Positions 4,366 to 55,100 of a stretch of DNA of 64,000 bases are shown here, piece after piece. The stretch is from Vitreimonas flagellata (lineage in GTDB: Bacteria; Pseudomonadota; Alphaproteobacteria; Caulobacterales; Aquidulcibacteraceae), in assembly GCF_004634425.1 (NCBI RefSeq), contig NZ_SBJL01000002.1:186001-250000 (forward strand), given 5' to 3'. Made by a program: the position numbers and the translations under genes. The notes under the pieces were generated by a model, which ran no database searches, was not told the origin of the DNA, and saw only the letters and a program-made list of their open reading frames with translations. The first letter of the stretch is position 1. Each line of letters opens with the position of its first letter.

Positions 4366-4390
4366 GCGCGCGATAGCGTGAAACGATTGA

Positions 4391-4427
4391 AGGGAGCGCT
4401 TCGCGGCGCTCCCTTTTTCTTTACCCG
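4391..4427 (+). terminator. Rho-independent terminator after the M13 peptidase
   Basis: Nine-bp GC-rich arms (AGGGAGCGC / GCGCTCCCT) flank a 6-nt loop and are followed by a T-rich run. The T-run overlaps the last codon of the convergent DUF1801 gene, so the structure may insulate both transcription units. Confidence 0.85.
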
Positions 4428-4834
4428 TACTTCTTGGTCATCTCTTTCCACGACTGCGCCACCAGGTCACGCAGCACGCCCGCGTCAACATCGGCGAGCT
4501 TGTTGATGTAGAGACAGCTTTTGCCGGTCTTGTGCTTGCCGAGCTTTTTCAGCAACGCGGCGCATTCTTTGGACTCCGACAAAACATAGAGCACCATATT
4601 CGCCTTGCGCGGCGAGAAGCCGATCTTCGGCCAAGGCGCAGAGCCCAAAGTATTGTTGTTCACCCATTGGCCATAGCCGATGATCGACGGTCCCCACATC
4701 GCCGGCTTTTCGCCGCTGATTTCGCGCATCAATTTGTCGACCGTCTTCGCATCCTTGCGGCGCGTCTCGTCTTCGACAGCGGCAATGAATTGCGCGACGG
4801 AGGCTTTGGTCTTCTGCGTTTTGGGTTCGGCCAT
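4421..4834 (-). CDS. DUF1801 (YdhG-like) domain protein
   Basis: This 137-aa soluble protein looks like the DUF1801/YdhG family, whose biochemical role is not established. Visible family features are an N-terminal helical part, a central segment with MWGPSIIGYG and a Tyr/Trp-rich surface, and a C-terminal LKKLGKHKTGKSCLYI strand-turn region. It lies one base downstream of the TIR-domain gene on the same strand and is almost certainly co-transcribed and translationally coupled with it. I see no signal peptide or membrane segment. A shared function with the TIR protein is only an inference from linkage. Confidence 0.85.
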   Translation of the reverse strand: MAEPKTQKTKASVAQFIAAVEDETRRKDAKTVDKLMREISGEKPAMWGPSIIGYGQWVNNNTLGSAPWPKIGFSPRKANMVLYVLSESKECAALLKKLGKHKTGKSCLYINKLADVDAGVLRDLVAQSWKEMTKKYG

Positions 4835-4835
4835 C

Positions 4836-5567
4836 TCATTGCCTCAGCGCATCGAGCGCGCGGCAGAACGCGCCGGGCGCGTTGCCTTGGTCGCACGCCA
4901 TACCGCCCATCGCAAAGATGAAAATGATGATCCCGACCAAAGGAAAGATCACGCCGATCACCCGCGTGAGAAACATCGAGGGGGAAAAGCTCGTGCGGTC
5001 ACGTTTCGATGTGTGCGTCGCCATAGGCGCCTCTTCTTCCTCGCCATCGTCGTCGTCATTACGCCCGCGTTCGCCGACCTGAATGTTGACGTTCTGCATC
5101 GTCACGCCTTGCAGCTTGATGCCCGGCGCTTCGAAATGCATCGGTCGCGGCGCCACCGGCATCGGCTCCGCGCGCACAATTGCCTGCACTACCGAGAGAA
5201 AGTGCTGCAAGCGCGGATCGTCCGCGCCGCCGCCCCAGGCCGCCAAATCGGCATATTGCACTTCGCCAAAACCAAGCGGCGGCGCCACGAGATCGAGCCG
5301 CACGGGCGCCAGCACTTTGCGCGCAAGCCCGTGCGTCGCCTCTTCCATCACCCACGCGCCCTGCTCGTGATCGACGCTATCGTTCGTCCACACCGCGACC
5401 ACGCACTTTGCCGCCGCGAGCTGCTTGGCGATCTCCGCGCGCCACGACGTCGACGGTTGAATGCCCTCATCCCACCAAACATCGAGCCCGGCATCACGCA
5501 AATGCGTCACCAACGGCCGCACGCGATCCGCATCGGACTTCTTGTAAGAGATGAAAACGTCGGCCAT
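4836..5567 (-). CDS. TIR-domain protein with C-terminal transmembrane anchor
   Basis: Residues 1-130 form a TIR-like fold: the opening strand FISYKKSDAD, the WWDEGI loop, and a WVMEEA segment carrying the Glu expected at the possible NADase active site. An acidic linker (about residues 171-179, Asp/Glu only) follows. A single transmembrane helix lies near residues 200-222, followed by a short tail with two Cys. Bacterial TIR proteins act in NAD depletion, in defence or as scaffolds. Here there is no Argonaute, SMODS, STING or other known defence partner next door; the only operon partner is a DUF1801 gene. The domain call is secure, but the function is not. Confidence 0.85.
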   Translation of the reverse strand: MADVFISYKKSDADRVRPLVTHLRDAGLDVWWDEGIQPSTSWRAEIAKQLAAAKCVVAVWTNDSVDHEQGAWVMEEATHGLARKVLAPVRLDLVAPPLGFGEVQYADLAAWGGGADDPRLQHFLSVVQAIVRAEPMPVAPRPMHFEAPGIKLQGVTMQNVNIQVGERGRNDDDDGEEEEAPMATHTSKRDRTSFSPSMFLTRVIGVIFPLVGIIIFIFAMGGMACDQGNAPGAFCRALDALRQ

Positions 5568-5632
5568 GCGCGCACTCCCCGTAGCGCGCGGAACTTAGCG
5601 GAGCAGCGCGCGCGGCGAACGTGAAATGCGTG

Positions 5633-6421
5633 TCAGGGATGGGCTGCGAGAAACGGCCAGATGTGGTCGTAAATGCCATCGCGCACCAAAGTGGCGTGGT
5701 CCGAGTTCGGCATGCGCACGAATTGCTTGGGCTCGTTCGCCAACGCAAACAGGTGCTCGCCCTGCGTGAACGGGACCACGCTATCAGCGTCGCCATGCAC
5801 GATCAGCACCGGCATGTCGACGCGACCGATATAGTCGCGCGATCGCCAGCTATCGCGGATCAGATAGCGCGCCAAAGAGAAATGCGAGGCCGCCACATCG
5901 TCGATGCCGGTGAACGGCGCTTCCAAGATGAGCGCCCGCGCCGGTCGCTCAGCCGCGAGTTGGACGGCGACGCCGGAGCCCAGCGAAAAGCCATGAATAA
6001 CGATGTTATCGGCTGCGTAGCCGTGCGCGATCAGCCAATCATAGCCGGCGCGGGCATCGAGACGCAGGCCGCGTTCGCTGGGGCTCCCGGTCGAGCCTGA
6101 ATAGCCACGATAATAGACAGCGAGAAAACCCGCGCCGCTTTCAGCGATGCGCCGCCAGCGCCCCTCCCAAATCTGCGGCCGCCCGCCATTGCCGTCGAAG
6201 AAGAGAAAGATCGGCTGCCCTTCCGCGGGCGCGCGATACCAAGCGGCGATGCGCTCACCATCCTCAGTCTCCAGCCGCACCGCCTGCGTTTCAGCAAAAT
6301 TCGGCGCAACCTCTTCTGTGTGTGGATGATAGACGAGGGAATTGGGGTAGGTGACTAGCAGCGCCAAGAGTGCGCCGACGATCAGCGTGGCTCCGATCAC
6401 AATCAGCAACCAACCGCGCAC
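5633..6421 (-). CDS. Membrane-anchored alpha/beta hydrolase (BEM46/FrsA-like)
   Basis: This 262-aa hydrolase has an N-terminal membrane helix (residues 4-23) and a hydrolase domain outside it. The nucleophile elbow is GFSLGSG (Ser146); Asp211 or Asp213 (in HGDAD) and His242 (SDHA) complete a plausible triad. The start is GTG with a GGGAG site 7 nt upstream; that site lies in the last codons of the truncated membrane-protein gene before it, which shows an ancestral two-gene operon. A second, decayed copy of the same pair lies at 18.1-18.8 kb. The substrate is unknown. Confidence 0.88.
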   Translation of the reverse strand: MRGWLLIVIGATLIVGALLALLVTYPNSLVYHPHTEEVAPNFAETQAVRLETEDGERIAAWYRAPAEGQPIFLFFDGNGGRPQIWEGRWRRIAESGAGFLAVYYRGYSGSTGSPSERGLRLDARAGYDWLIAHGYAADNIVIHGFSLGSGVAVQLAAERPARALILEAPFTGIDDVAASHFSLARYLIRDSWRSRDYIGRVDMPVLIVHGDADSVVPFTQGEHLFALANEPKQFVRMPNSDHATLVRDGIYDHIWPFLAAHP

Positions 6422-6583
6422 CTCTAACTCCCTATCGCAATGCCCACTTCATGGCGCCATTCACAGGCGACGATCGACGAACTCAGACGGCGCAGGAGCG
6501 GTGTGACAGACGCAGCATCCAGAACGCGGCATACAATCTGACGCAGCTCGGCGGGCTCTCGGCGCGATAGATAGAGTCCCCCA
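6096..6583. repeat. Left copy of a diverged direct repeat flanking the NRPS island
   Basis: This segment holds the 5' half of the intact hydrolase and the 3' end of the truncated membrane-protein gene. It aligns by eye, in the same orientation, with 18114-18486. Bases 6571-6583 match 18474-18486 almost exactly, and similarity stops abruptly after that. The copies are clearly diverged paralogues, not a recent target-site duplication. Confidence 0.75.
6424..6583 (-). pseudogene. 3' fragment of small membrane protein gene (paralogue of 18379-18813)
   Basis: Reading the minus strand from 6583 gives GGLYLSRREPAELRQ, then VLDA and a tail ending at the stop at 6424-6426. The gene at 18379 contains GGLYLSRREPAELRQ followed by IICDVLDA. 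Everything upstream, including both membrane helices, is missing and an in-frame stop (TAG) lies just before the similarity. The gene was therefore cut at about 6583, the left edge of the accessory island. Confidence 0.8.
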
Positions 6584-6739
6584 CCGCGCGGAAAGACCTA
6601 CCCATCTCGAAGAAATTGGAGACGGGTGCATCAAATGATGCGACGATGTCATGCTGATCATGCCGATCTTTTCCGCCGCGCCTGGGAAATGGCGCGGGTT
6701 GAAGATAACGAGGGGATCACACCACGGTTCGATGCTGCC

Positions 6740-8290
6740 TCATCGCGCACCGCCTCTCAAGGCGACCAGTTTGTGCTGCACACGAGAGAGGGTCTTGCTG
6801 CTCATGGCTTTTAAGCCACCATATTGTGGCAGCCAGACAATCATTATTACGGATGCCGCCGCGTACAAAACGCCCGCGACGAATATCGCTACGAGGCCTG
6901 GAACAAATCCCACGCGCGCACAAACTTGCTCAAGTGCGGGGCCAAGCAAGATCGCCACAACAGTCGGCGGCGCCAAAACAGCGACGACATCTCGCATCGA
7001 AATGGTTGTCCTACGCGTCGCCATCCAGAAACAGGGTAGCATCAGCAAGGTCGCCGCGATCGTGTAGCCTAATGCAACACCAAATCCACCAGCTGGGAGT
7101 CCGATCACGAAAGCTACCGCGTATGTGGGCGAGGCTATCAGGGCCCAACGCAACAAGAGATCTGTTCGCCCGAGCGACATATAAATCCATGCCGTGGTGT
7201 TCATCGGAGTGGTCGCCAGCATGCAGGGCGCGAGCGCAGAAAAAATCAGCCGCGCATCGTCCCAGCCCGGCCCGAAGATCAAGGGAATGATGACTTTCGA
7301 TCCGCCAAAAAGTACGGCGGAAATGCCGGCTGAGACAATCGTAACTGCGCTAAGGCCTGTCAGGTAGGCCTCACGCCAGCGCACAGGATCGTTCTGTACG
7401 CGACTTAGCGCTGGCAACAGCGCAGAACTCAGCGGACCATTGACTAGGTTGAGCGGCAAAAGAAGTAAACTATAGGCCCGGGAATAGTAGCCGAGTTCGG
7501 TTGCGCCCCCCTTCCATCCGACCAAAACATTGTCGAGCTGACGGTGGAAGTAGTTCGCGAAAGCAAATCCGGTCAAATTCAATCCGAAACCGAGCGCACC
7601 GCGGACGCTTCCCCAATCCGTGATCCGGCTTGGCCGCCATGGGCACATCAACCAGGCAAGCATACTGCTGACCCCGGCATTCACCCATATCTGAACGACC
7701 AGAGCCCAATACCCGATATCCGTCCACGCGGCGAGGGCGACGGCGGCGATCAGCCCGAGAAGCTGGGAAAAAAGGCCGATCGAGTGCAGCGTGAGCCATC
7801 TCATCTGTCGTGTAAGTAACGCCGAGTGCTGCGCGCCGAGGGCGCCTACCGGCAGGCTGGCCGCCACGATCATGAGGAGCAGCGGAATGCGATCGTCGTC
7901 AAATACCAACACAGAAAATGGCGCAAAGGCGAACAGCAGCAGCGCCATACCGGCCGCGACGCCGACGCCCACAATAAGGAAGCCGCTTACCAAGTTTTGA
8001 TCGATATCTTTGCGCTGAACAGTGGCGGTCTGAAGACCAAGATCCGTGAACGCCCCGACAAACGCCGTGACAGTGCCGGCCATTGCCAGCAGCCCAAAAT
8101 CAGCCGGAGCAAGCAGACGCGCCAAAATAAAGGTGCTCAAAAACTGCAGCACCATGCGCGTGAGCTGCGCACCCAATGCGAGCGCGCTGCCATTTACCGT
8201 CCTGGCGCCAAGGTTCTCCAGTACGTGCTCGCTGTCGAGCGCGCGCCTGTTTATCTCCGCTTGCGGTAGTCGGTCGGTAGGGGGGGTCAT
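6740..8290 (-). CDS. MOP-superfamily lipopolysaccharide/oligosaccharide flippase (Wzx/WzxC-like)
   Basis: This is a polytopic inner-membrane protein of about 516 aa with 12-14 hydrophobic segments. Its opening matches flippase-type MOP transporters (VNGSALALGAQL..., then ILARLLAPADFGLLAMAG). Such proteins move lipid-linked oligosaccharides or lipidic precursors across the membrane. I start it at the ATG at 8288-8290 (MTPPTDR); the frame stays open upstream, but that segment is compositionally poor. It is the last gene of a minus-strand set containing an esterase, NRPS and methyltransferase. It could export an NRPS-derived product or serve the exopolysaccharide system; linkage alone cannot decide. 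Confidence 0.9.
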   Translation of the reverse strand: MTPPTDRLPQAEINRRALDSEHVLENLGARTVNGSALALGAQLTRMVLQFLSTFILARLLAPADFGLLAMAGTVTAFVGAFTDLGLQTATVQRKDIDQNLVSGFLIVGVGVAAGMALLLFAFAPFSVLVFDDDRIPLLLMIVAASLPVGALGAQHSALLTRQMRWLTLHSIGLFSQLLGLIAAVALAAWTDIGYWALVVQIWVNAGVSSMLAWLMCPWRPSRITDWGSVRGALGFGLNLTGFAFANYFHRQLDNVLVGWKGGATELGYYSRAYSLLLLPLNLVNGPLSSALLPALSRVQNDPVRWREAYLTGLSAVTIVSAGISAVLFGGSKVIIPLIFGPGWDDARLIFSALAPCMLATTPMNTTAWIYMSLGRTDLLLRWALIASPTYAVAFVIGLPAGGFGVALGYTIAATLLMLPCFWMATRRTTISMRDVVAVLAPPTVVAILLGPALEQVCARVGFVPGLVAIFVAGVLYAAASVIMIVWLPQYGGLKAMSSKTLSRVQHKLVALRGGAR

Positions 8291-8425
8291 ATTGTAGCCC
8301 GGATGATTGTCGCGAAGATAGAAACGCGCGTTCTTAAAACTCAATTGCGGCGCCGCGGATGCGACACATAAGTGCGCCCTTACGAGCAGGGCGCAACGCA
8401 CGAGCAATGCGAATGGATGAACCGG

Positions 8426-9226
8426 TCAGTCCGTTCTCCTTTGCTGAAGCAGCCACGCAAAGTTCGCGCGCGTATAGACCCGATCCCTGATGTCGTGTCC
8501 CGCCCAGCGCAATTCCGTGTAGCGCGCAAGCGCGCCAAGTTCATGTAAGCGCGCCGCCAGTTCGCGGCTGTTGGCTACGGGCGTGATTTTATCTGCACGA
8601 CCATGATAAAAGCGAATTGGCAGTTTCGTGACTCGGCCCATTGCGCGTGGGTCCCCCGCGCCGTTCAAAATCAACGCCGCAGCGAACAGATCCGGGTAAT
8701 ATGTAAGGGCGTCCCAGCTCCCCTCTCCGCCCATCGACATCCCAGTAAGATAGATACGCGACGGATCAGCGTCATGTTTGTGGGAGACGTCTCGCAGTAA
8801 GCGGATTGCGGTCTGAAGATTCTTGCTCTCAGCGATCACGCGCTGATCGAAATTGGTGAAAGGCGGGTCGAAGCTGGGATAGTTCACCCAATGAGTGCGT
8901 ATGCCCGCCTGTGGGGCCAGGACCAAGACCGGCTCAAGCCCCTGGCAGGCGTCAGAGAGCAAATGGTCCACGCTCTCATCCAGCTGGCTGAGATTGTCAT
9001 CGCCACGACCAGCACCGCCATGCAGCGCCAACACTATCGGCAATCGCTCTAAACCGCCACCGGCGGCGGGCGGGACGTACAACCGCCAAGGCATTATGTT
9101 GCCAGAGACGGGATCGGTGTACACGCCCGCGCCCATGCGCGAAGCGAGCGAACGCTGCCAGTGAGGCTTCTCTCTCTTGATCGTGACGTGTGCCCCCGTT
9201 CTCATCCCGCCACCACAAGAAATCAT
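8426..9226 (-). CDS. Alpha/beta hydrolase, PHB-depolymerase/esterase type
   Basis: This 266-aa protein has an oxyanion-region HGGAGRGDD (from His69), nucleophile elbow GMSMGG (Ser164), an acid in HGRADKITP and a His in WAGHD, as in the prolyl-oligopeptidase-like/PHB depolymerase esterases. I chose the ATG at 9224-9226 because GGGAG sits 6 nt upstream; longer starts lack such a site. No convincing signal peptide is visible, so it may be cytosolic. It lies between the NRPS and flippase genes and could hydrolyse or tailor the NRPS product, or be an unrelated esterase. Confidence 0.83.
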   Translation of the reverse strand: MISCGGGMRTGAHVTIKREKPHWQRSLASRMGAGVYTDPVSGNIMPWRLYVPPAAGGGLERLPIVLALHGGAGRGDDNLSQLDESVDHLLSDACQGLEPVLVLAPQAGIRTHWVNYPSFDPPFTNFDQRVIAESKNLQTAIRLLRDVSHKHDADPSRIYLTGMSMGGEGSWDALTYYPDLFAAALILNGAGDPRAMGRVTKLPIRFYHGRADKITPVANSRELAARLHELGALARYTELRWAGHDIRDRVYTRANFAWLLQQRRTD

Positions 9227-9683
9227 CAAACACTCCCAAGGGGCGTTGTTCAAGCTCTTCGTCGTCTGTCCATCGCGCGGCACAGCTGATCCGCGTCAGT
9301 CCGCCGAGCTTTCCGTGTGGGCGGTCGTCAATCCGCGGGAGCGATGCACGCGTGCGGCAGCGTTGAGAAGCTCATCACATTGAAGCTCTCGCTGACGGGG
9401 CTCTGCTGTGGCTTGCCAAGTTGGATCCATTGCCAGACCGCGCCGCACTCGTCGGGGTTCGTGCGCCGCACGCTGGCCCGATCGAGCAAGCGCAAGCGCA
9501 GGGCTTGAAACGATCGAATTTTGCGACCTGGCCGGTGGCAATTCGGAGTGCGGCCCATTTCGAGATGAACTCTATGGAGTCACCTCAATCGGCTCAGCTA
9601 GGGCGCCATTCCTGGCGATAAGCGGTAGGGTTTTGCTCAACAAATTGCTCACGACGTGATCGATCAAAACAGAGCACCGGCAA
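9227..9683. other. Non-coding stretch between esterase and NRPS
   Basis: No open frame here has credible composition or recognisable similarity. It may carry a promoter for the esterase-flippase pair on the minus strand, but I could not pick out a convincing -35/-10 or operator. There is no terminator-like hairpin with a T-run after the NRPS stop. Confidence 0.5.
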
Positions 9684-12600
9684 TTATCGGTTGACGTCCA
9701 TCAGCGTCAAATTTCGCGCTGGAGGGGCAGTCACCTGCACGTCTTGTGTCCGCACCACCGCATTTCCCAACGCCTCGCCAACGATCTTCGCCAGCGCCTT
9801 TGTCGTTTCGCCCAGAAACAGATCGGCGTGACGGGCCACAATCATTCGGACATCAACCGCGCCCTCCGAAAACTCGTTCCACCCTCGTTGAACGACCTCC
9901 GGGCCGTCACCATAGGTTGCTCGATCGGGCAATGGGCGCCTGATGAAAATAAGCGAAGCGCGTAATCGGTAATTGGGTCGGTAGATTCGATTTGCATGCA
10001 ACAGGCGCGGGATAACCTTCTCCATGCCATAGTCTGGAATGATGCCCCACTCCTTGTAACGCTCATGGGCGGGACGCGTTAGCCTCGCGACACGAGTCAC
10101 AATCTCGCTCCAGCGCATTGAAGGAAGGTCCCGAACCCAGTCGACGATTTTCGATGCAAGACCCCGCTTCGACGGAAAACCCGGAGCAGGCATGTCGAAC
10201 GATATAAATCCGAGCAAGGGCTTGTTCAGGCTCTCCATCTGGCGCGCAATCTCGAACGCCAGGCGCGCGCCGATAGAATAGCCGCTAACGATGAATGGAC
10301 CTTCCGGACAAATTTTCTCAAGTTCAGCAATATATTTCGCCGCTATGGCCTCTACCGTCGTTGGCAATTCGTCGATGTTGCCCACGCCGAACGGCTTGAG
10401 GGCATAGACAGTCGCTTCGAAAGGCAGCGCCCGGGCAAAATTCAGAAACGAGAATACGTGCCCGCCAACGCCGGGAACCAGAAGCATGACCGGTGAGCCC
10501 GGCGCGGCTTCTCTCAGAGGTACGAACACGGTGTTTACGGGGGTGAAGTGCTCGTTGATGGCTTCAGCAAGTCGCCGGATTGTCGGCGCCTGCAACAAAA
10601 CGTCCGGCGAAAATGAATAGGCAAACTCCGTCCTTATCCGCACCATAAGATTCGCTGCGGACAGTGAGGTGCCACCGAGATCCTGGAAGGAATCCATGAC
10701 GCTGACCTTGTCGATTCCGAGGATCTCCATCCACATCTGCGCCAAGATAAATTCAGTCTCGTTTCCCGGCTCGACATAATCGCCGCCTACCGATTCCGAG
10801 TCATGAAAATCGGCCGGATCGGGCAATGCCTTGCGGTCCACCTTGCCGTTCGGTGTGAGCGGAAATGTTTCAAGCTGCACGTACGACGATGGGATCATGT
10901 ACTCAGGCATGCGTTCACGAGCGAACGCACGAAGCGCATCGGCATCAATCGTCTCGCCCGTAGTGGCGAGCAGATAGGCTACAAGACGTTTCTCGCTCCC
11001 CTTGTCATCCCGCGCCGCCACTACGCATTGCTTGACGGTCGGATGAGCTTCAAGATGGGTTTCGATCTCACCCAGCTCTATGCGGAATCCTCGTAGTTTG
11101 ACCTGGTTGTCGATACGCCCGAGGAAGCGGATATCGCCACTTGCGCGCCGCACGACGAGGTCGCCGGTCCGGTACAGGCGTTCTCCCGGCGTGAAGGGAT
11201 GGTCGATGAACTTCTCGCGGGTCATCTCGTCGAGGGCGAAATAGCCGCGGGCGAGTCCGTCGCCGCCAATCAGCAACTCACCCGGAACACCAACGGGCTG
11301 CAGCGCCAAATCCGGGCTGCAAATCAAGAACGATGTATTCGCAATCGGATAGCCAAGATTTATGGCGTCCTCCTTCGCCTGTACCCGGCGAACCGACGAC
11401 CAGATGGTGGTTTCAGTAGGTCCATACAGGTTCCAGACCTCGCACCCGGTCGCAATAAGCTGGTCCGCCAATTCCTGCGACATCGCCTCGCCGCCGCACA
11501 GCACTTTTATCCGCGGGTCGCCGCGCCAGCCCTGATCCAGCAACATGCGCCAGGTCACGGGTGTGGCCTGCATGATCGTGGTTCCCGTCTGCTGGATGCT
11601 GGCGAGTAACAGCTCGGGATCGAGGGCAAGCTTCTGGGACTTGACCACAACCTGCGCGCCGCAAACGAGCGGCAAGAAAAGCTCGAGCGCAGCGATGTCG
11701 AAGCAAATCGTCGTCAGGCTGTGCAACACGTCGCCGCGTCCGATGCCGGGTTCGCGCCGCATAGATTCCAGGAAATTCACGAGACCACGGCGGACAACCT
11801 GCACCCCTTTGGGCCGGCCGGTAGAGCCGGAAGTGTAAATCACATAGGCAAGATCATCGAGGCCGCCGGCCGGCGGCTGATCCGAGGCATCCCCATCTTC
11901 CAGGCTCGGATCGTTTGCTTCGAGCAGGACGATCTCCGCCTTGCCAGCTTCAAGGCGGTCCACCACGCTGGCTTGGGAAATGCAGACTTTCGTACGCGAA
12001 TTTTCCACCATGTAATGGAGACGATCGACCGGGAAGGCGGGATCCAGCGGGACGTATGCCCCCCCTGTCTTCATGACCGCGAGCAACGCGACCACAAGGT
12101 CGGGGGAACGCTCCATGCAAATGGCCACGAGTTCGCCTGGCCCAACGCCCATTTTGCGCAGCCGCGCCGCCAGCCGATTGGCGCGCGCGTTCAGCTTAGC
12201 GTAGGTCAAAGCATAGGTCTCGCCGATCACAGCGGGGGCATCCGGCGAGGCTGCAGCCTGCTGCTCCACGAGTTGGTGCGGATGTAGGTCTGGGAACGGC
12301 GTGGCAGGCGGATTCCACTTGTGCAGCAAAGCTTCCCGCTCAACCGCGTCGAGCATGTCGAGCATCGCCAGCGGCGTGTCGGGGTTCTCGATCGCCCTGC
12401 TCATGAGCGCCACATAGTGGCCGGTCATGCGTTCGGCGGTGTCATGCTCAAACAGGTCGCTACTGTACTCGAGCGTTCCCGACATGCGCGCGTCTTCTTC
12501 AAGCATGGACAGCGTGAGGTCGTACTTGGAGCCCCCCGTATGCAGCGGAATCTGAGAGAGCTTCAGTCCCGGGATTTCCCAGCGGCCGTGGGTATTGTTG

Positions 12601-15521
12601 CGATGAATGAAGAGGTGTTGGAAGAGCGGCGAACCTGCCCGTGAGCGCGGGACTTCGAGCGCCTCAACAAGATCCTCAAATGGAAGCTCGTCATTGCTGA
12701 ACGCGTCTATCGTCGCCGTCCGCATCTGCGCCAGCAAACCTCGGAAGGTTAGGCCAGGGGCGAAACGTGCCCGCAAGACGAGATTGTTGATAAAGAGGCC
12801 AATCATGTCCTCCGTCTCAGCGAGATACCGTCGCCCGGTGGGCGTGCCGACGAGGATGTCGTCCTTTTGCGAATATCGATGCAACAACATCTGCCAGCAA
12901 GCGATAAGCGCCATGAAGGTTGTCGCCGATTCCGCCCTCGCGAAATCCGCCACGGCATTCGCCAGGTCAGCGGGTACCTGGAAAGCGACCTGCCCCCCTT
13001 TCAGCGACGGCGTGTCGGGGCGCAAATGGTCGCCCGGCACCTGCAGCGGCTCTGGTAAGTCCGCCAGCTGCTGCTTCCAATAGGCAAGCTGGGGTTTCAG
13101 ATCGCCCTTGCTCGCTCGCTCGCGCTCCCAAACGGCATAGTCCGCAAACTGGTACTCAAGTGGCGCCAAAGGCATTTGCGTCTGGCCGGTCGTGAAAGCG
13201 GAATACAACGCGCCAAGTTCACGGAAGAAAATGCCGGAGGACCAGACATTGTCGTAAACAATGTGGTTGAACACCAACACAAGGATCGCGCTTTCAGGCC
13301 CCAAGCGCAGCAAGGCGCTCTGGAACAGCGGCCCGCGCTCCAGATCATGTTGGCGTTGCAACAATTGTTTGGCTCGCGCCTGCCAGCATGCTTCCTGCGC
13401 TTCTGCCGGCAGGTCGCTGAGATCGGTTATTTCCAGCGGCATTGGCGTCGCCGGGAGCACCTCCTGCCGAGGCTCGCGTTCGCCCTGCGGGAAACATGTG
13501 CGCAGCACTTCATGCCGCGCGACAATCTCGTTAATCGCGCGCTCCAGCGCGGCCACGTCAAGCGGCCCATCAAGACGCACAGTGTTGCTGATGTTGTAGG
13601 CTGAATTGCTGTTACTCAGCACATCGACAAGCCACATGCGGCGCTGCGCCAAGCTCACGGGCAAGCTTCCTGTACGCGGCGCGTGCGCCAGCCCGGGCAT
13701 AGCACTGGCCAAACTGGAATCGGCGCGGCGTATAAACTCGGCAATCGCTTTGAAATCGGGCGCTTCAATTACCTGGCGCATGTCGAGCCGAACACCGAAG
13801 CGGTGTTGCACACGGGCAATAAGCCTGGTGGCCGACAATGAATGACCACCCAAGTCGAAGAAGTTATGGTTGGTGCCGATATTAGCGGCGCGCAACAATT
13901 CGCCGGCGATTTCCAGCAAGTCGCGCTCAAGATCATCGACCGGGGTCACTGGCACGTCATCCGGGAGCGAATTGCCCATCACAGGCGCAGGCAACGCCAA
14001 CCGGTCGACCTTATTGTTCGGCGTCCGCGGCATGGCGTCCAGCCTGACGTAGATCGTCGGCACCATGTAGTATGGCACGCGCCGTTGCAGGTGCTGGCGC
14101 AAAGTGCGAACGCTGATGTCTCTGGCGCCCTCCCCTGTCACCAGATAGGCGACCAAGTGTTCTTCACCGTCAACATCGCGGGCAATTACTGAGGCCTCGC
14201 TTACGCCAGGATGATCGTGCAGCGCGGTCTCAACCTCTCCCACCTCCACGCGGAAACCGCGGATCTTGACCTGGAAATCCTTGCGCCCACGATGCTGCAG
14301 CAGCCCGTCGGCGCGCAGTTCGCCCATGTCGCCGGTCCGATAAGTGGATGCGTCGGCGTCGCCAGTCGCGGCCTCAAACGCCTTGTCCGTTGCCTCGGGA
14401 TTGTTCCAGTACCCCAGCGCCAGGTACGGACTGCGCACGGTGATTTCACCGATCTCGCCAACGCCAACTGGCTTGCCGTCATCGCCCCGCAGCACAATCT
14501 CCATCCCCTCAACGGGGTAGCCGATCGGAACCGTAGCGCCGTCCCACACGGTCTCTGGACCGATGTAAAAATAACGAATGGTGCCCGTCTCGGTTGAGCC
14601 AAGGCCAGTATAAAACTCGACTTGGCGCCCAAAGACGTCACGGGCTAACTCCACATCGGAGGTCAGCACACGCTCTCCACCAAAAATAACCAGTCTCACG
14701 GAAAACGAAGCCGATCCGCGTGGATAGGTGGCGGCGAACTGACGGAAGACGGATGCGACCGAGTGGTAGATCGTGATGCGATTTCCCGCGAGCCATTCGC
14801 CGAGTGCATCCACGCCGCGTTCGCGGAAGTCGTAAGGGAACAGCCCCGCCCCATTCAGCAGCGCGCCGAAAATGCAGTAAACCGATCCCATGACGCTGCA
14901 GGAATAGAACAGCGTCATCCGGTCTGCGGAGGTGACATGCTGCAATCGGCTCCGTCGCATCGCACCATGCAACGTGTTGCGCTGACTCTGCATTACCCCC
15001 TTGGGTTTGCCGGTCGAACCGGAAGTGTAGATGATGTAGGCGAGCGCGTCCGGAGAAATATCAATATCGGGATTGCTATCCGGCCCCGCCGGCAACGTGT
15101 CGATATTGACCACGCGCGCTTTGCCCGCAGAAAGATTCTCCGCCATCTCCAGATTGCGCGAATTGGTGACCACGACAGTGGCTTGGGAGTTTTCGACGAT
15201 GTAAGCGTTGCGGCTTTCCGGAAAAGCAGGATCAACAGGAACGTAGGCGTGCCCCGCCTTAAGCACGCCCAAGATGGCGGCGACGCACGATGAACCGTTC
15301 TCGATGCACACAACCACCCGCTCGGCGGACCCCGATAGCAACACATGGGCCAGTCGATTGGCGAGGCGATTCAGCTCCTCATACGTCAGAGAAAGCTTCT
15401 CATCGCTGACCGCCAAGTTATGCGGTGCGCGATCGACCTGCTGCTCGAAACACTTGGCGATCGATTGCTCAATGTTCATCGACGCGGCCGGTTCGGCGAG
15501 ATCAAGAGGCCTCAAACTCAT
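9684..15521 (-). CDS. Nonribosomal peptide synthetase, A-PCP-C-A-PCP-TE
   Basis: This 1945-aa assembly-line enzyme builds a two-unit product and releases it by its own thioesterase. Domains: A1 about 20-510 (A3 motif YTSGSTGKPKGV); PCP1 with carrier Ser near 560 (LGGHSL); C about 615-1045, active-site NHIVYDN (catalytic His near 753, first His of HHxxxD is Asn); A2 about 1080-1590 (YTSGSTGRPKGV); PCP2 with Ser near 1617 (LGGTSL); TE with GYSIG (Ser near 1747) and a late His. A1 lacks the Asp that normally binds the alpha-amino group, its region reading VMGSVY. A2 reads as code D-I-L-Q-L-G-L-I-W plus Lys, which I recall as glycine-type. An AAGGT site supports the start; the methyltransferase stop lies 3 nt upstream. 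Confidence 0.96.
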   Translation of the reverse strand: MSLRPLDLAEPAASMNIEQSIAKCFEQQVDRAPHNLAVSDEKLSLTYEELNRLANRLAHVLLSGSAERVVVCIENGSSCVAAILGVLKAGHAYVPVDPAFPESRNAYIVENSQATVVVTNSRNLEMAENLSAGKARVVNIDTLPAGPDSNPDIDISPDALAYIIYTSGSTGKPKGVMQSQRNTLHGAMRRSRLQHVTSADRMTLFYSCSVMGSVYCIFGALLNGAGLFPYDFRERGVDALGEWLAGNRITIYHSVASVFRQFAATYPRGSASFSVRLVIFGGERVLTSDVELARDVFGRQVEFYTGLGSTETGTIRYFYIGPETVWDGATVPIGYPVEGMEIVLRGDDGKPVGVGEIGEITVRSPYLALGYWNNPEATDKAFEAATGDADASTYRTGDMGELRADGLLQHRGRKDFQVKIRGFRVEVGEVETALHDHPGVSEASVIARDVDGEEHLVAYLVTGEGARDISVRTLRQHLQRRVPYYMVPTIYVRLDAMPRTPNNKVDRLALPAPVMGNSLPDDVPVTPVDDLERDLLEIAGELLRAANIGTNHNFFDLGGHSLSATRLIARVQHRFGVRLDMRQVIEAPDFKAIAEFIRRADSSLASAMPGLAHAPRTGSLPVSLAQRRMWLVDVLSNSNSAYNISNTVRLDGPLDVAALERAINEIVARHEVLRTCFPQGEREPRQEVLPATPMPLEITDLSDLPAEAQEACWQARAKQLLQRQHDLERGPLFQSALLRLGPESAILVLVFNHIVYDNVWSSGIFFRELGALYSAFTTGQTQMPLAPLEYQFADYAVWERERASKGDLKPQLAYWKQQLADLPEPLQVPGDHLRPDTPSLKGGQVAFQVPADLANAVADFARAESATTFMALIACWQMLLHRYSQKDDILVGTPTGRRYLAETEDMIGLFINNLVLRARFAPGLTFRGLLAQMRTATIDAFSNDELPFEDLVEALEVPRSRAGSPLFQHLFIHRNNTHGRWEIPGLKLSQIPLHTGGSKYDLTLSMLEEDARMSGTLEYSSDLFEHDTAERMTGHYVALMSRAIENPDTPLAMLDMLDAVEREALLHKWNPPATPFPDLHPHQLVEQQAAASPDAPAVIGETYALTYAKLNARANRLAARLRKMGVGPGELVAICMERSPDLVVALLAVMKTGGAYVPLDPAFPVDRLHYMVENSRTKVCISQASVVDRLEAGKAEIVLLEANDPSLEDGDASDQPPAGGLDDLAYVIYTSGSTGRPKGVQVVRRGLVNFLESMRREPGIGRGDVLHSLTTICFDIAALELFLPLVCGAQVVVKSQKLALDPELLLASIQQTGTTIMQATPVTWRMLLDQGWRGDPRIKVLCGGEAMSQELADQLIATGCEVWNLYGPTETTIWSSVRRVQAKEDAINLGYPIANTSFLICSPDLALQPVGVPGELLIGGDGLARGYFALDEMTREKFIDHPFTPGERLYRTGDLVVRRASGDIRFLGRIDNQVKLRGFRIELGEIETHLEAHPTVKQCVVAARDDKGSEKRLVAYLLATTGETIDADALRAFARERMPEYMIPSSYVQLETFPLTPNGKVDRKALPDPADFHDSESVGGDYVEPGNETEFILAQMWMEILGIDKVSVMDSFQDLGGTSLSAANLMVRIRTEFAYSFSPDVLLQAPTIRRLAEAINEHFTPVNTVFVPLREAAPGSPVMLLVPGVGGHVFSFLNFARALPFEATVYALKPFGVGNIDELPTTVEAIAAKYIAELEKICPEGPFIVSGYSIGARLAFEIARQMESLNKPLLGFISFDMPAPGFPSKRGLASKIVDWVRDLPSMRWSEIVTRVARLTRPAHERYKEWGIIPDYGMEKVIPRLLHANRIYRPNYRLRASLIFIRRPLPDRATYGDGPEVVQRGWNEFSEGAVDVRMIVARHADLFLGETTKALAKIVGEALGNAVVRTQDVQVTAPPARNLTLMDVNR

Positions 15522-15524
15522 GAG

Positions 15525-16370
15525 CTACCTTGCTTTGTAAAAGATGGTTGCCTGTCGGCGCAGCCAGTCGCGCCCGCTACGCGTGAAGGGCTTGCGTCCC
15601 ACATACGAGCCGGCCCAGGCGTTCCCGCGATCGACGCGCGCATCGTTGTGAATCTCTTCGACCAGGTATTCCAACGGCTCCAAGCCAAGCTGCTTGGTCA
15701 TCTGCGCCCGCATGTCGGTATCCACCCCGTTGATGAACAGCGCGCCTCCAGCAGTCAGCACATGATGAATGTTCCTGAAGGCCTCACGCGCCTGAGAGCG
15801 CGGCAGGTGGAACAGGACATTCTGAGCGAACACCATATCAGCCTGGCCCAATGACTCCATGAACTGCCGGTCGAGCAGGTTGCCCTCGGCAAAGGTGATT
15901 GGCTCCCTGATCTCCGCCTTTATGCGCAGGAGCCCCTCGCCCGCGGGTTCGAACATCTCGCCTAAGAGCTCGTCGGTTACGAATGGACCCCAGCTGGCCT
16001 CCTCGAGCGTAAAGAGCCCGGCCTTAGCCTTTTCGATCACATCGCCTACAATGTCGTAGCCGCGTATGCTGTAGCGCAACTCCGGAAAGTGCCTGCGCAG
16101 CACATAGGATAGCGAAAACGCTTCCTCGCCGCTGCAGCAGGCGAATACCAGGATTTTCAGGGGCTCGGCGCCCACCCCATGCGGCCTAAGTGCGGGTACG
16201 ACCCGCTCGACCAGTGCGCGCAACTGATGCGGAAAACGGTAGAATTGCGTGTACACTCGATTTTCGCGCTTCGCGAACCGGATGATCAGGTCGTGTTTGA
16301 GCTTGCGTATCTCCGTCCACAGGCGGGTCTGCTTCAACGCGGAGATCCTGTCATCGACCGCCTCAGACAT
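15525..16370 (-). CDS. CheR-like SAM-dependent methyltransferase
   Basis: This 281-aa class I methyltransferase resembles the catalytic domain of CheR. The SAM-binding motif is FACCSGEEAFSLSY, where CheR has a GCSTGEE-type motif; the GYDIVGDVI acidic loop and NVLFHLP (CheR: NVLIYF) follow. It lacks CheR partners: no CheB or receptor gene is near. The ATG at 16368-16370 has a GGAGGG site at good spacing, so the upstream open frame is not used. It ends 3 nt before the NRPS start. Methylation of the NRPS product, probably on oxygen or carboxylate, is the natural inference, but the substrate is unproven. Confidence 0.88.
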   Translation of the reverse strand: MSEAVDDRISALKQTRLWTEIRKLKHDLIIRFAKRENRVYTQFYRFPHQLRALVERVVPALRPHGVGAEPLKILVFACCSGEEAFSLSYVLRRHFPELRYSIRGYDIVGDVIEKAKAGLFTLEEASWGPFVTDELLGEMFEPAGEGLLRIKAEIREPITFAEGNLLDRQFMESLGQADMVFAQNVLFHLPRSQAREAFRNIHHVLTAGGALFINGVDTDMRAQMTKQLGLEPLEYLVEEIHNDARVDRGNAWAGSYVGRKPFTRSGRDWLRRQATIFYKAR

Positions 16371-16649
16371 CGTTAACCCTCCGCCTCCGCTTCCTGCACC
16401 AAATTCTTGCCGCCATTCGTGACCCCTGACCATGAGCAATATAGGCGCCAAGCTCGTCCGCCAACGGCGGCGCCCTAAGATTGGTGGGCGGCATCTCAAC
16501 GCCGAAAACGTCTCGCCGGTTAGGAGCAGCGTTCACGCACAGCGTTAGATCGCTAGGGCCGACGGCGTAACTCATGGCATCCACCCTTCGTGGTGCGGCC
16601 CAAATAGGCTCGTTAACGGGCTCAGTCGATCCGCTCGCGTCCCACCCGC

Positions 16650-17717
16650 TTACTCAGCACGCTCTCGCCGGTTTCCAACAGCGGAGGTTTGCTCACTGCG
16701 CCTCGATTGAAACGTCGCCTCTAGCGGAAAATGATCGGATGAAGTTCTTGGCCCGCGCCGCACCGACACTAACCGCCAGTGGGCGCCCGAATAGACATGA
16801 TCAATCGGAAGAAAAGGCGTGAGCGCAGGCAGCCTCAACCGCGTCCACTCCTGAGCGGGCCAGGTAGGCAACGCGCGCGTATGCCGCTGCAGTTCACTCG
16901 CGCCATCAAAGCGGCGAAGCGTGAATGACCACGGCGTTGAATTGAAGTCGCCTGCCAGAATGACGGAGGCTTGGTCACTGCCTATCACGTCAAGGAGTGC
17001 GTCTAATTCGCGTTGCTGTCTGCCAGGCGGATTAGGGCGCGCGACGTGCGCCGCGATCAGGCGAAGCTGCGCGCCGTCAATGTCAAAATCGCCAGCAGTC
17101 GCGCGAAGGCCGGTTTGGGTTTGTACGGAAAGAGCCTCACGTTTAGCGAAGATGATGGTATTGCATGCGCGCCCGTCCTCACAGCGGATTACTGTCGGAT
17201 AGGTGGCGCGCAGGCGTCGAAACGACGCTTGCCCCTCGTCGTGCATTTCCGACACCAAAAGGAAGTCCGCTTCGCTCGTTTCTAGATAATGCAGCACGTC
17301 TTCAGAAGGCCGCGAGCCCAGCCATGTGTTAAGCCATACGATACGCACCGTTCGTTCCGCGGTTGGGGTCGCCGCCAAAGGCGCATTTGTGCGCATGAAT
17401 TCAGGAGCGATGATCACCGCTTGAGCGAGTGTGGCGATCGCGCAGTAGACAGCCCAACCGCGAGAACCCGCCAACCAACAGGCCAACACTCCGGCTAGAC
17501 TGACGGCGAGCCAAATGGGCGCGAAGTGATTCAGTCCGTCTAAAAAAGGCGATATGGCTCCACCCCAGGCGGCAAGCGCAAGCAACAGCGTAGCTCGCCC
17601 TAGAACCGCTGGACCGTTGGTACGCACGACCGCAATAATCGAACCGATCATCACTCGCCACCTTAAGGCTGATGCCCATGCTCTATCTGGTTTGAAGGCG
17701 GGTCTACCGAGCGTCAT
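16650..17717 (-). CDS. Membrane endonuclease/exonuclease/phosphatase-family protein
   Basis: This 355-aa protein has two or three N-terminal membrane helices (roughly residues 15-105) and a C-terminal metal-dependent EEP domain. Its motifs are LNTWLGS (Asn ligand), SEMHDE (Glu ligand), LAGDFNSTPW (Asp/Asn), and the C-terminal IDHVYSG and SDHFPLE that supply catalytic Asp-His. The EEP fold covers nucleases, sphingomyelinases and inositol-phosphate phosphatases; membrane-anchored forms like this are generally uncharacterised. GGAG five nt before ATG 17715-17717 sets the start. The IS3-type end begins about 35 nt upstream, so its native promoter may be lost or replaced. Confidence 0.87.
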   Translation of the reverse strand: MTLGRPAFKPDRAWASALRWRVMIGSIIAVVRTNGPAVLGRATLLLALAAWGGAISPFLDGLNHFAPIWLAVSLAGVLACWLAGSRGWAVYCAIATLAQAVIIAPEFMRTNAPLAATPTAERTVRIVWLNTWLGSRPSEDVLHYLETSEADFLLVSEMHDEGQASFRRLRATYPTVIRCEDGRACNTIIFAKREALSVQTQTGLRATAGDFDIDGAQLRLIAAHVARPNPPGRQQRELDALLDVIGSDQASVILAGDFNSTPWSFTLRRFDGASELQRHTRALPTWPAQEWTRLRLPALTPFLPIDHVYSGAHWRLVSVRRGPRTSSDHFPLEATFQSRRSEQTSAVGNRRERAE

Positions 17718-17752
17718 ATTGTCTCCGAGATTGCGAAACGCAAACAAACCGG

Positions 17753-18118
17753 TGAACCGCACCGGATTTGCCGGAGGCTCCCTTTCTTGAGAAGGTGGAG
17801 CAATGAGCAAGTCCAAGACAAGACCGAACTATTCGCCGGAGGTGCGTGAGCGCGCCGTCCGAAAGGAGCATAGTTCGAAATGGGCGGCGATTGAATCGAT
17901 CGCGGCCAAGATCGGTTGCGTGCCGCAGACGCTACATGACTGAGTTCGCCGAGCGGGACCAGGGTCTACGCCCGGGCCTCACGACCGACGAGTGCGAGCG
18001 CATGAAAGCGCGGAGCGGCAAAACCGCGAGCTGCGCCAGGCCAATGAAATCCTGAAGAAGGCGTCGGCGTATTTTGCCCTGGCGGAGCTCGATGATCGCC
18101 TTCATCGACGAGAACCGA
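17753..18118 (+). mobile_element. IS3-family insertion sequence remnant (left end only)
   Basis: The sequence from 17753 (TGAACCGCACCGG...) looks like the terminal inverted repeat of an IS3-group element and is followed at the usual distance by the orfA start. Only orfA and the first codons of orfB (MIAFIDENR) remain. At about 18115-18119 the sequence switches directly into the decayed alpha/beta hydrolase. The right end and nearly all of orfB are gone. It forms the right boundary of the NRPS island. Confidence 0.8.
17803..18115 (+). pseudogene. Broken IS3-type transposase orfA (and start of orfB)
   Basis: From ATG 17803 the frame encodes a helix-turn-helix transposase N-terminus ([20 protein letters not shown], then [13 protein letters not shown]) and stops after 46 codons at a TGA. 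Typical IS3 OrfA continues; its continuation is visible in shifted frames as AERDQGLRPGLTTDE, then RELRQANEILKKASAYFALAEL. A short deletion after RAVR and at least two frameshifts make it non-functional. The orfB start MIAFIDENR follows in the overlapping frame, as in active elements. Confidence 0.85.
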
Positions 18119-18331
18119 GATAGCCGCGACAATAAACAGCAAGAAAGCCCGCGCCGCCTTCCGCGATACGCCGCCAGCGCCCGTCCCAAATCTGCGGCCG
18201 CCCCATCGAAGAAGAGAAAGATCGACTGCCCTTCGGCAGGCGATTGATACCAAGCAACAATGCTTTCGCCGTCCTCCGTCGCGATGCGCACAGCCGTCTC
18301 AGCGAAGTTCGTCGCGACAAGTTCGGTGTGC
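18114..18331 (-). pseudogene. Decayed alpha/beta hydrolase (paralogue of 5633-6421)
   Basis: On the minus strand the segments NFAETAVRIATEDGESI, AWYQSPAEGQSIFLFFDG and, after a frameshift, RPQIWDGRWRRIAEGGAGFL align with residues 41-100 of the intact hydrolase. The frameshift comes from loss of 8 bases in the NGGRP region. The gene is cut after the AVYCRGY segment, where the IS3 remnant begins, so the nucleophile elbow and the rest of the catalytic domain are absent. The 5' end has also diverged beyond recognition. Confidence 0.85.
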
Positions 18332-18486
18332 GGGGCGGCTTCTTGTGTAGCCGCCCGCTCACTGGGCGCCTCGCAGTATCAAGGCGGCGGCAATGTTGGA
18401 AGCGGCGTGATGGCGTTCGCATCAAGGACGTCGCAAATGATCTGGCGCAGCTCGGCAGGCTCCCGGCGCGATAAGTAGAGTCCCCC
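18114..18486. repeat. Right copy of the diverged direct repeat flanking the NRPS island
   Basis: This is the counterpart of 6096-6583. It holds the 5' part of a decayed alpha/beta hydrolase and the 3' end of the membrane-protein gene, in the same order and orientation. Base differences are spread along its length, and there is an 8-base deletion near 18207. Confidence 0.75.
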
Positions 18487-18669
18487 AACAATCCATACCG
18501 ACCAGAACGCACTTGAGAGGATCAATTGCGCGACAATGACAACCCAACCGACACTCGCGAATTGCCAGATGATACTCGCTGCAAACAGCACATGAAACGC
18601 GATCATGATGCGAGACAGATAGGCGCGACAACGCACCGACGTACCATCAACCTCACTCTGGAGGTGCAT
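18379..18669 (-). CDS. Small two-helix membrane protein, intact copy (possibly longer, to 18813)
   Basis: This hypothetical protein has two membrane helices (MIAFHVLFAASIIWQFA and VVIVAQLILSSAFWSVWIV) and a cytoplasmic-looking tail GGLYLSRREPAELRQ. The frame is open up to 18813, where only a TTG could start it; I use the first ATG (96 aa), but neither start has a good ribosome site. It is the intact relative of the fragment at 6424-6583 and lies just after pntB. Its ancestral partner, the alpha/beta hydrolase downstream, is destroyed. I do not recognise a named family. Confidence 0.55.
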   Translation of the reverse strand: MHLQSEVDGTSVRCRAYLSRIMIAFHVLFAASIIWQFASVGWVVIVAQLILSSAFWSVWIVGGLYLSRREPAELRQIICDVLDANAITPLPTLPPP

Positions 18670-18816
18670 ATAGAGATGGTTGCGCCACGAATTGAATCCA
18701 TAGCGCACGGAAAGCGTCGCATGGCCGCCAATCGGCCATCCAGAGATGTTGTCTTTCAGCCTACGCCGGCATTTCTCCAATGGGTGTGGCGAGCGCAAGA
18801 CAACGAGTTGCAATCC

Positions 18817-20220
18817 CTAGAGCCCCTTCACGATCTCGTCCGTCATCTTCTTTGCGTCGCCGAACAGCATCATCGTGTTGTCGCGGAAGAAGAGTTCGTT
18901 TTCGACGCCGGCATAGCCTGAGCCCATGCCGCGCTTGATGAAGAGCACGGTCTTGGCCTTTTCCACGTCGAGGATCGGCATGCCGAAAATCGGCGATTGC
19001 GGATCGGTTTTCGCCGACGGATTGGTCACGTCGTTGGCGCCGATCACGTAAGCGACGTCGGCTTGGCTGAACTCGTTGTTGATGTCTTCGAGTTCGAACA
19101 CTTCATCGTACGGCACGTTGGCTTCGGCCAAGAGCACGTTCATGTGGCCCGGCATGCGGCCGGCGACCGGGTGAATGGCGTATTTCACCTCCACGCCTTC
19201 CTTCTTCAGCATATCGGCCAATTCGCGCACGCTGTGCTGCGCTTGCGCCACCGCCATGCCGTAACCCGGCACGATGATCACCTTGGATGCGTTCTTCATG
19301 ATGAAAGCCGCATCGTCGGCGCTGCCCTGTTTCACCGGGCGCGTTTCAACGTGTCCCGCCGCAGCGCCGCCATCGGCCGTGCCGAAGCCGCCGAGGATGA
19401 CGCTGATGAAGCTGCGGTTCATGCCTTTGCACATGATGTAGCTGAGGATGGCGCCCGATGAACCGACCAGAGCGCCGGTGATGATGAGCGCCACGTTCTC
19501 CAACGTGAAGCCAAGCGCTGCAGCCGCCCAACCAGAATACGAATTAAGCATCGAGACGACGACAGGCATGTCGGCGCCGCCGATCGGGATGATGAGCAGC
19601 ACACCAATCAGCAGGGAGAGGCCAACGATGGCCCAATAGTGCCATTCGGTGCGGCCCCCATCCTGAATCGTCAGAACCACCAGCGCGACGATGGCGATGG
19701 CAATGGCGATGTTGATCAGATGGCGCGCGGGCAGCATGATCGGCGCGCCGCTCATATTGCCGTTGAGCTTCGCGAACGCGATAACCGAACCGGTGAAGGT
19801 GATGGCGCCGATCGCGGTGCCGAGCGCGAGCTCGATGAGCGAACTCATTTTGATGCCGCCGTCCGCCGTGGCGATGTGGAAGCTGTCCGGCGCATAGAAA
19901 GCCGCCGCGGCCACCGCGACGGCCGCCAGGCCCACGAGCGAGTGGAACGCCGCCACGAGTTGCGGCATCTCCGTCATCTTGATCGAGCGCGCGATCAAAG
20001 CGCCGATGCCGCCGCCAATCACAATGGCGCCGCCGATGATCAGCATCGTCGTCGTATCGAGATCGACCAAGAGCAGCGTCGTGACGACGGCGATCGCCAT
20101 GCCGAGCATGCCGAAATTGTTGCCCTGACGGCTCGTCTCGGGGCTCGAAAGCCCACGCAGCGCGAGAATGAAAAGCACCCCGGAAACGAGATACAGGAGT
20201 GCGGCGAGATCAGCGTTCAT
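18817..20220 (-). CDS. pntB: NAD(P) transhydrogenase subunit beta
   Basis: This is the beta subunit of the proton-translocating, Re/Si-specific transhydrogenase, which makes NADPH from NADH using the proton gradient. Nine or so membrane helices fill residues 1-265. The C-terminal NADP(H)-binding dIII domain carries VPGYGMAVAQAQH, ADVAYVIGANDVTNP and the end motif KRGMGSGYAGVEN. Its 467 aa are full length. It is the last pnt gene of a minus-strand operon that starts near 24.1 kb, but it is separated from the alpha subunits by accessory genes, 12 nt after the preceding one. Confidence 0.97.
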   Translation of the reverse strand: MNADLAALLYLVSGVLFILALRGLSSPETSRQGNNFGMLGMAIAVVTTLLLVDLDTTTMLIIGGAIVIGGGIGALIARSIKMTEMPQLVAAFHSLVGLAAVAVAAAAFYAPDSFHIATADGGIKMSSLIELALGTAIGAITFTGSVIAFAKLNGNMSGAPIMLPARHLINIAIAIAIVALVVLTIQDGGRTEWHYWAIVGLSLLIGVLLIIPIGGADMPVVVSMLNSYSGWAAAALGFTLENVALIITGALVGSSGAILSYIMCKGMNRSFISVILGGFGTADGGAAAGHVETRPVKQGSADDAAFIMKNASKVIIVPGYGMAVAQAQHSVRELADMLKKEGVEVKYAIHPVAGRMPGHMNVLLAEANVPYDEVFELEDINNEFSQADVAYVIGANDVTNPSAKTDPQSPIFGMPILDVEKAKTVLFIKRGMGSGYAGVENELFFRDNTMMLFGDAKKMTDEIVKGL

Positions 20221-55063: not shown

Positions 55064-55100
55064 CTTGGTGCCGTGCGCCAGGGCGGTAACACTAGGGACA

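What the first reader, a model, noticed from the sequence alone, without database searches (positions are those of the whole stretch)
6583..18118. NRPS island inserted between two diverged copies of the same gene pair
The left flank has an intact hydrolase plus a 5'-truncated membrane-protein gene; the right flank has an intact membrane-protein gene plus a 3'-truncated hydrolase. Both breaks fall exactly at the island edges (6583 and about 18115). The copies are diverged, so this is not a target-site duplication. The simplest history is a tandem duplication of the pair, followed by insertion of the island with loss of the inner gene halves, probably helped by the IS3 element.
Basis: partly seen in the sequence, partly recalled or inferred. 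Interest (0 to 1): 0.75.

Follow-up and report, generated by a model that had tools for sequence, protein, structure and literature searches.

The report
NRPS island in gene-turnover hotspot
A foreign-looking block of peptide-making genes sits in a chromosome slot whose contents differ from relative to relative, with broken halves of two versions of a small gene pair left at its two edges; this fits a known kind of gene-swapping hotspot.

Summary
Pieces of the same two genes flank the island in the same order and orientation: 6101-6325 matches 18120-18333 (78%), 6515-6583 matches 18419-18487 (83%). The right hydrolase piece is more damaged than described: start deleted, 8-bp deletion, 3' end lost. 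The 'IS3 element' is a decayed 368-bp remnant.

Relatives change the reading. The conserved genes pntB and DUF1801 bound a variable slot: 4-7720 bp in 21 same-genus genomes, 13,985 bp here; two of three neighbouring gene pairs keep spacings of at most 151 bp. The island's composition is foreign. Of 23 relatives with a closed slot, 9 hold one hydrolase and none holds a second piece. The membrane gene was found only in this genome.

The two copies differ from each other about as much as each differs from G023, the closest relative with the gene, so a recent tandem duplication is disfavoured but not excluded (AU p=0.061). Most likely the halves are two alleles of the slot's content, joined by one-sided recombination. 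Such hotspots and such displacement are described. No donor or recombination boundary was found, and no integrase among the six island ORFs scanned.

The parts
18817..20220 (-). pntB, NAD(P) transhydrogenase beta subunit: conserved right border of the slot
   Evidence: NCBIfam PRK09444, E=3e-168, 561 bits, below that model's curated cut-off of 689; found in 40 of 41 genomes searched, this one included
18379..18720 (-). small putative membrane-protein gene, pntB-side copy (the ORF can be extended to 18813)
   Evidence: ORF, translation; matched in 1 of 61, 1 of 30 genus and 1 of 398 order genomes, each time only this genome; membrane nature judged by eye from hydrophobic stretches
18120..18333 (-). 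hydrolase pseudogene fragment: start deleted, 8-bp frameshift deletion, 3' end lost at the island edge
17753..18119 (+). decayed 5' remnant of an IS3 element (orfA part), ending at the hydrolase fragment
   Evidence: up to 70% DNA identity to IS3 transposase genes on plasmids in the rows listed; alignment with indels and early stop; only match in the genome among the 40 of 44 candidates scored
16650..17690 (-). endonuclease/exonuclease/phosphatase-family gene (island)
   Evidence: Pfam PF03372, E=1.4e-18 on ORF 16650-17816; that ORF's start reaches into the IS3 remnant, so the true start is probably lower
15525..16499 (-). CheR-like methyltransferase (island)
   Evidence: Pfam PF01739, E=1.5e-26; matches elsewhere in the genus are 24-34% identical
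9684..15521 (-). dimodular NRPS: A-PCP-C-A-PCP-TE (island)
   Evidence: Pfam domains; eight best plasmid records 34.7-37.1% identical
8426..9283 (-). esterase-like gene (island)
   Evidence: Pfam PF10503 Esterase_PHB, E=6.1e-8
6740..8407 (-). MOP-type polysaccharide flippase (island); true start probably below 8407
   Evidence: Pfam PF13440, E=3.3e-67
6424..6583 (-). 3' end of the second membrane-gene copy, 5'-truncated at 6583
   Evidence: 82.6% identity to 18419-18487; 83% amino-acid identity over 29 residues; its frame runs to a stop at 6426-6424, two bases before the hydrolase start
5633..6421 (-). intact alpha/beta hydrolase, island-distal copy
   Evidence: Pfam PF12146, E=9.5e-10; 85% identical over 262 residues to G023
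4836..5567 (-). TIR-domain gene, another occupant of the slot
   Evidence: Pfam PF13676, E=4.9e-22; matched in 9 of 21 relatives' slots bounded by DUF1801, in two of them only in part
4421..4834 (-). DUF1801 gene: conserved left border of the slot
   Evidence: Pfam PF08818, E=2.7e-9; borders the slot in 21 of 28 genus genomes whose pntB locus was read

Best explanation
The stretch between pntB and the DUF1801 gene is a hotspot of gene turnover in this genus, without a recognised integrase, and the NRPS cassette (6584-17752) is foreign cargo captured there. The slot's earlier content in this lineage was pntB - membrane gene - hydrolase - TIR gene. The two broken copies at the island edges are most likely two alleles of that content, one resident and one that came in with the island from a related lineage. 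They were joined by recombination that was homologous at one conserved side (pntB or TIR/DUF1801) and illegitimate at the other, inside the membrane gene (6583) or inside the hydrolase (18119). The broken ends and the IS3 remnant then decayed. Shown: slot variability, foreign composition of the island, the partial copies, their species-level divergence, the decay. Inferred: that one copy is of outside origin, the one-sided mechanism, and its direction.
For: Slot length 4-7720 bp in 21 genus genomes bounded by pntB and DUF1801 (13,985 bp here), against 13-62 bp (n=26) and 21-151 bp (n=16) for two neighbouring pairs. Occupants change from genome to genome. G015 has a different ~7-kb cargo at the same place. 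Island tetranucleotide distance 0.246, against 0.100-0.122 for 17 overlapping native segments; GC 59.3% against 63.1%. Copy-to-copy divergence is like divergence to G023 and lies mostly at third codon positions, so most of it arose while both copies were working genes. The best of three tested trees pairs the right fragment with G023, not with the left copy. One hydrolase in 9 of 23 closed slots, a second piece in 0 of 23; this genome's own right fragment is found at E=1e-30 under the same settings. No tRNA in the window. Published precedent: passages of PMC5361080, passages of PMC5635113 with part of its abstract, abstract of PMC3240628.
Against: No donor genome was found, and the membrane gene has no second host. 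pntB shows no mosaic break and neither flank a sharp change of divergence against G023, so no recombination boundary is seen. Only 215 aligned columns support the tree; the two competing trees are not rejected at 5% by AU. A free tree of all hydrolases has weak support and puts the right fragment beside G053, the most distant sequence, probably long-branch noise. Homology-facilitated illegitimate recombination is rare where measured. A third neighbouring pair, DUF1801-M13, also varies, 13-1138 bp.
Confidence: 0.52

Rival explanations
1. Old or lineage-specific tandem duplication of the membrane-hydrolase pair, later interrupted by the island with loss of the inner halves.
For: Same order and orientation of both copies. 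The membrane gene is known only from this genome, in both copies. The tree pairing the copies is not rejected by AU (p=0.061).
Against: No relative has two copies (0 of 23 closed slots). Divergence is at species level, so the duplication would have to be about as old as the split from G023 and would need loss there. The right fragment shares more derived sites with G023 (5) than with the left copy (1).
Confidence: 0.3
2. Single-crossover integration of a circular molecule carrying the island and a diverged membrane-hydrolase allele. This gives flanking copies in one step, followed by deletion at the inner ends.
For: Predicts direct repeats of the homologous segment on both sides, in the observed order, with species-level divergence.
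Against: Needs two further deletions exactly at the inner ends. No plasmid, integrase or transfer family was matched by the six island ORFs scanned.
Confidence: 0.12
3. Assembly artefact joining DNA of two organisms.
For: Island composition differs from the flanks.
Against: The window is an interior part of a 984-kb contig of a 16-contig genome scored 99.97% complete and 0.39% contaminated. Both flanks match G023 collinearly. The decayed junction sequence is not what a chimeric join would give (inference).
Confidence: 0.03

Closest known systems
Hotspots of horizontal transfer between core genes, many without recognisable mobile elements (PMC5635113; part of the abstract and passages seen)
   Same: Variable gene content between two conserved genes; no tRNA found, no integrase among the ORFs scanned, only a decayed IS
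   Different: Seen here across species of one genus, and excess homologous recombination in the flanking genes was not shown
Displacement by homology-facilitated illegitimate recombination leaving orphan remnants, as proposed for Vibrio T6SS effector-immunity arrays (PMC5361080; passages seen)
   Same: A conserved gene on one side, new cargo, and a truncated older allele left on the far side
   Different: The cargo is a biosynthetic cassette, and the remnant pair shows no selected role
Integrase-borne genomic island
   Same: Foreign composition, clustered cargo
   Different: No integrase among six island ORFs, no tRNA, no direct repeat within either edge region and none between the edges in the self-comparison except the gene copies

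Membership tests
Horizontal-transfer hotspot without mobile element | Gene content between the same two conserved genes differs among relatives far more than at neighbouring intervals | tested here: met
   Slot 4-7720 bp in 21 genomes against 13-62 bp (n=26) and 21-151 bp (n=16) for two neighbours; a third, DUF1801-M13, 13-1138 bp (n=18), is intermediate
Horizontal-transfer hotspot without mobile element | Cargo of foreign origin | tested here: met
   Tetranucleotide distance 0.246 against 0.100-0.122; the CheR-like tracer has one 32% match at E<=1e-25 in 397 other sampled genomes of the order and none in 384 others sampled from the class
Horizontal-transfer hotspot without mobile element | Raised homologous recombination in flanking core genes | tested here: inconclusive
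   No mosaic break in pntB or along the flanks against G023; no population sample was available
Product of homology-facilitated illegitimate recombination | One junction homologous, the other illegitimate, resident allele truncated | tested here: inconclusive
   Truncated alleles on both sides; no donor, so the homologous junction cannot be placed
Tandem duplication with later insertion | The copies are each other's closest relatives | tested here: inconclusive
   Best of three trees pairs the right copy with G023; pairing of the copies has AU p=0.061, and its RELL proportion of 0.041 falls outside the 95% set
Tandem duplication with later insertion | Island-free relatives with two copies | tested here: not met
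   0 of 23 closed slots
Integrase-borne genomic island | Integrase gene and tRNA or direct-repeat attachment sites | tested here: not met
   Six island ORFs scanned, tRNA scan of the window, repeats; smaller ORFs were not scanned

The most novel reading that the evidence does not exclude
The pntB-DUF1801 slot grows and turns over by repeated one-sided displacement. Each arriving allele breaks the previous one, so half-genes at cargo edges are a readable record of successive captures, and whole biosynthetic cassettes can be fixed this way without any mobile-element enzyme.
Probability: 0.3. Interest if true: 0.45.

Novelty: new member of a known kind. Interest (0 to 1): 0.3.

Why it matters
It turns an apparent duplication puzzle into a chromosomal slot where relatives can be compared allele by allele, and it suggests how a biosynthetic cassette can settle in a genome without a visible mobile element. 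It also shows that flanking half-copies should not be read as tandem duplication before relatives have been checked.

Tried and rejected
Target-site duplication: rejected, the copies are 78-83% identical and span parts of two genes. IS3 as mover of the island: only a decayed remnant, at one edge. Integrase- or tRNA-borne island: none found in six ORFs and one tRNA scan. Finding the island elsewhere: the CheR-like tracer gave one weak match in the order sample (G240, 32%), with no other island gene matched in the 19.9 kb fetched around it, and none in the class sample. Three plasmid CheR neighbourhoods were opened: two are annotated without an NRPS, the third carries no annotation in the table. 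Mosaic break in pntB: not seen. Carrier-protein remnant near 6584-6740: a look-alike peptide gave no Pfam match. Distant membrane-gene homologues in the spacers of 8 relatives: none convincing. A G017 slot ORF that fell into the hydrolase cluster links only through 44 residues outside the hydrolase, and no hydrolase match was found in that slot. No paper search named the pntB slot itself; four hotspot or mechanism searches were answered, one of them with no paper, and one was malformed.
Full report
What is there. The window is an interior part (186001-250000) of contig C2 of a 3.9-Mb genome in 16 contigs. The finding holds at base level: window 6101-6325 matches 18120-18333 at 78.2%, and 6515-6583 matches 18419-18487 at 82.6%, same strand and order. 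Left, in the direction of transcription: the 3' end of a small putative membrane-protein gene (6583 to a stop at 6426-6424), two bases, then an intact alpha/beta hydrolase (6421-5633). Right: a longer copy of the membrane gene (18379-18720, or up to 18813), then a hydrolase fragment that stops at the island edge (18120). The right fragment is more broken than described: it lacks about the first 31 codons and carries an 8-bp deletion. A global alignment of the two copies shows five gaps in the right copy (32, 12, 60, 3 and 8 columns) and none in the left; the first three remove the junction between the two genes, where the alignment is poor.

The island. From right to left on the minus strand: an endonuclease/exonuclease/phosphatase-family gene, a CheR-like methyltransferase, a dimodular NRPS (A-PCP-C-A-PCP-TE), an 81-codon ORF without a Pfam match, an esterase-like gene and a MOP-type flippase. 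A peptide product that is exported is inferred from these families; nothing here tests it. Tetranucleotide distance from the 19-64 kb part of the window is 0.246, against 0.100-0.122 for 17 overlapping segments of about the same size from that part; the shorter left flank gives 0.144. GC is 59.3% against 63.1%. The CheR-like protein was used as tracer. Within 30 genus genomes the other matches are 24-34% identical. At E<=1e-25, 2 of 398 sampled order genomes (this one and a 32% match) and 1 of 385 sampled class genomes (this one) pass. The other island genes were not traced in genomes. Among plasmids the eight best NRPS records are 34.7-37.1% identical.

The IS3 remnant. 17753-18120 aligns (71% identity, 12% gaps) with the first part of an IS3 element on a Methylobacterium plasmid, whose transposase gene is 1229 bp. 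It gave the only match in this genome. It touches the hydrolase fragment, but it is decayed and lacks most of the transposase, so it marks an older event at the right edge and does not explain the left one.

The slot. In 9 relatives the hydrolase lies between pntB and a DUF1801 gene. Of the 29 other genus genomes, 28 gave a pntB match (G027's was seen at its hydrolase locus; G016 gave none), and the locus of each was read. Five ran into a contig end; 23 had the slot closed, 21 by DUF1801 and two by the next gene, M13. Slot length in the 21 is 4 to 7720 bp (median 1446), against 13-62 bp for ORF 20233-pntB (n=26), 21-151 bp for M13-RND (n=16) and 13-1138 bp for DUF1801-M13 (n=18). In this genome it is 13,985 bp. 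G001 and G011 have pntB and DUF1801 4 bp apart. A hydrolase is present in 9 of 23 closed slots, never twice: a permissive search (E up to 1) of the slots longer than 30 bp found no second piece in any genus genome, while this genome's own right fragment scores E=1e-30 under the same settings; the only extra match was a 17-residue one at E=0.37 in G050, outside the genus. A TIR gene, whole or partial, is in 9 of the 21. Other occupants differ: clustering of 65 slot ORFs (both strands, so some are shadows of real genes; G050 and the unclosed slots included) gave 7 groups of two or more and 34 singletons. G015 carries a ~7-kb cargo with an epimerase-family and a GMC-oxidoreductase gene between pntB and hydrolase. 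G050, of another family in the order, also has the hydrolase next to pntB, which suggests that this neighbourhood is old.

The two copies. Over 215 aligned columns of the hydrolase, left and right agree at 175, left and G023 at 180, right and G023 at 182. Differences fall mostly on third codon positions: left-right 8/74, 6/73 and 28/74 at positions 1, 2 and 3; left-G023 7/85, 4/85, 32/86; right-G023 4/74, 4/73, 26/74. So most of the divergence arose while the copies were working, and it is about as large as that between species. Among sites where at least three of four outgroups agree, 5 are shared derived by right and G023, 2 by left and G023, 1 by left and right. Of three tested trees the one with right + G023 is best; the other two have AU p=0.061 and 0.0605, not rejected at 5%, though the left + right tree falls outside the RELL 95% set (0.041). 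A free tree of all 14 sequences has supports of 26 to 81 and places the right fragment beside G053, the most distant sequence (55), probably long-branch noise.

Reading. The data fit two alleles of slot content meeting in one genome better than a recent tandem duplication. [quoted passage not shown] the process was measured as rare in E. coli (PMC3240628, abstract). The direction cannot be fixed. If the left end was illegitimate (inside the membrane gene), the right copy came with the island; if the right end was illegitimate (inside the hydrolase), the left copy did. The weak right-G023 pairing leans to the second.

Against it. No donor is known, the membrane gene is unknown elsewhere (1 of 61, 1 of 30 and 1 of 398 genomes, always this one), and no change of divergence marks a crossover in pntB or the flanks. 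An old duplication with loss in G023 would leave the same picture and keeps 0.3.

Verdict. A well-seen structure, an incomplete history. The locus is a new member of a known kind: a turnover hotspot without a recognised mobile element, holding a foreign NRPS cassette.

Noticed in passing
window 4836-5567: A TIR-domain gene with weak matches to defence-associated TIR families is a frequent but not constant occupant of the same slot; two relatives (G007, G017) keep only parts of it and in G005 it matches in two pieces.
   Followed up: partly
L045 (G015), about 2917-9898: A different ~7-kb cargo (epimerase-family, GMC-oxidoreductase and other genes; one 460-residue ORF without a Pfam match recalls FkbH-like proteins, from memory) sits between pntB and the hydrolase in a relative.
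   Followed up: partly
L039, L043, L044, L119 (G004, G027, G024, G007): The M13 peptidase gene next to the slot is matched as two tandem, diverged copies in these relatives (one cut by the locus end in G024) but once in this window.
   Followed up: no
window 55029-58584: Two adjacent hybrid histidine kinase genes about 70% identical in DNA over 1.1 kb: a diverged tandem pair.
   Followed up: no
L037 (G023) 8466-9197: An ORF without a significant Pfam match lies directly after pntB in G023, G027 and G008 and has no match in this window.
   Followed up: partly
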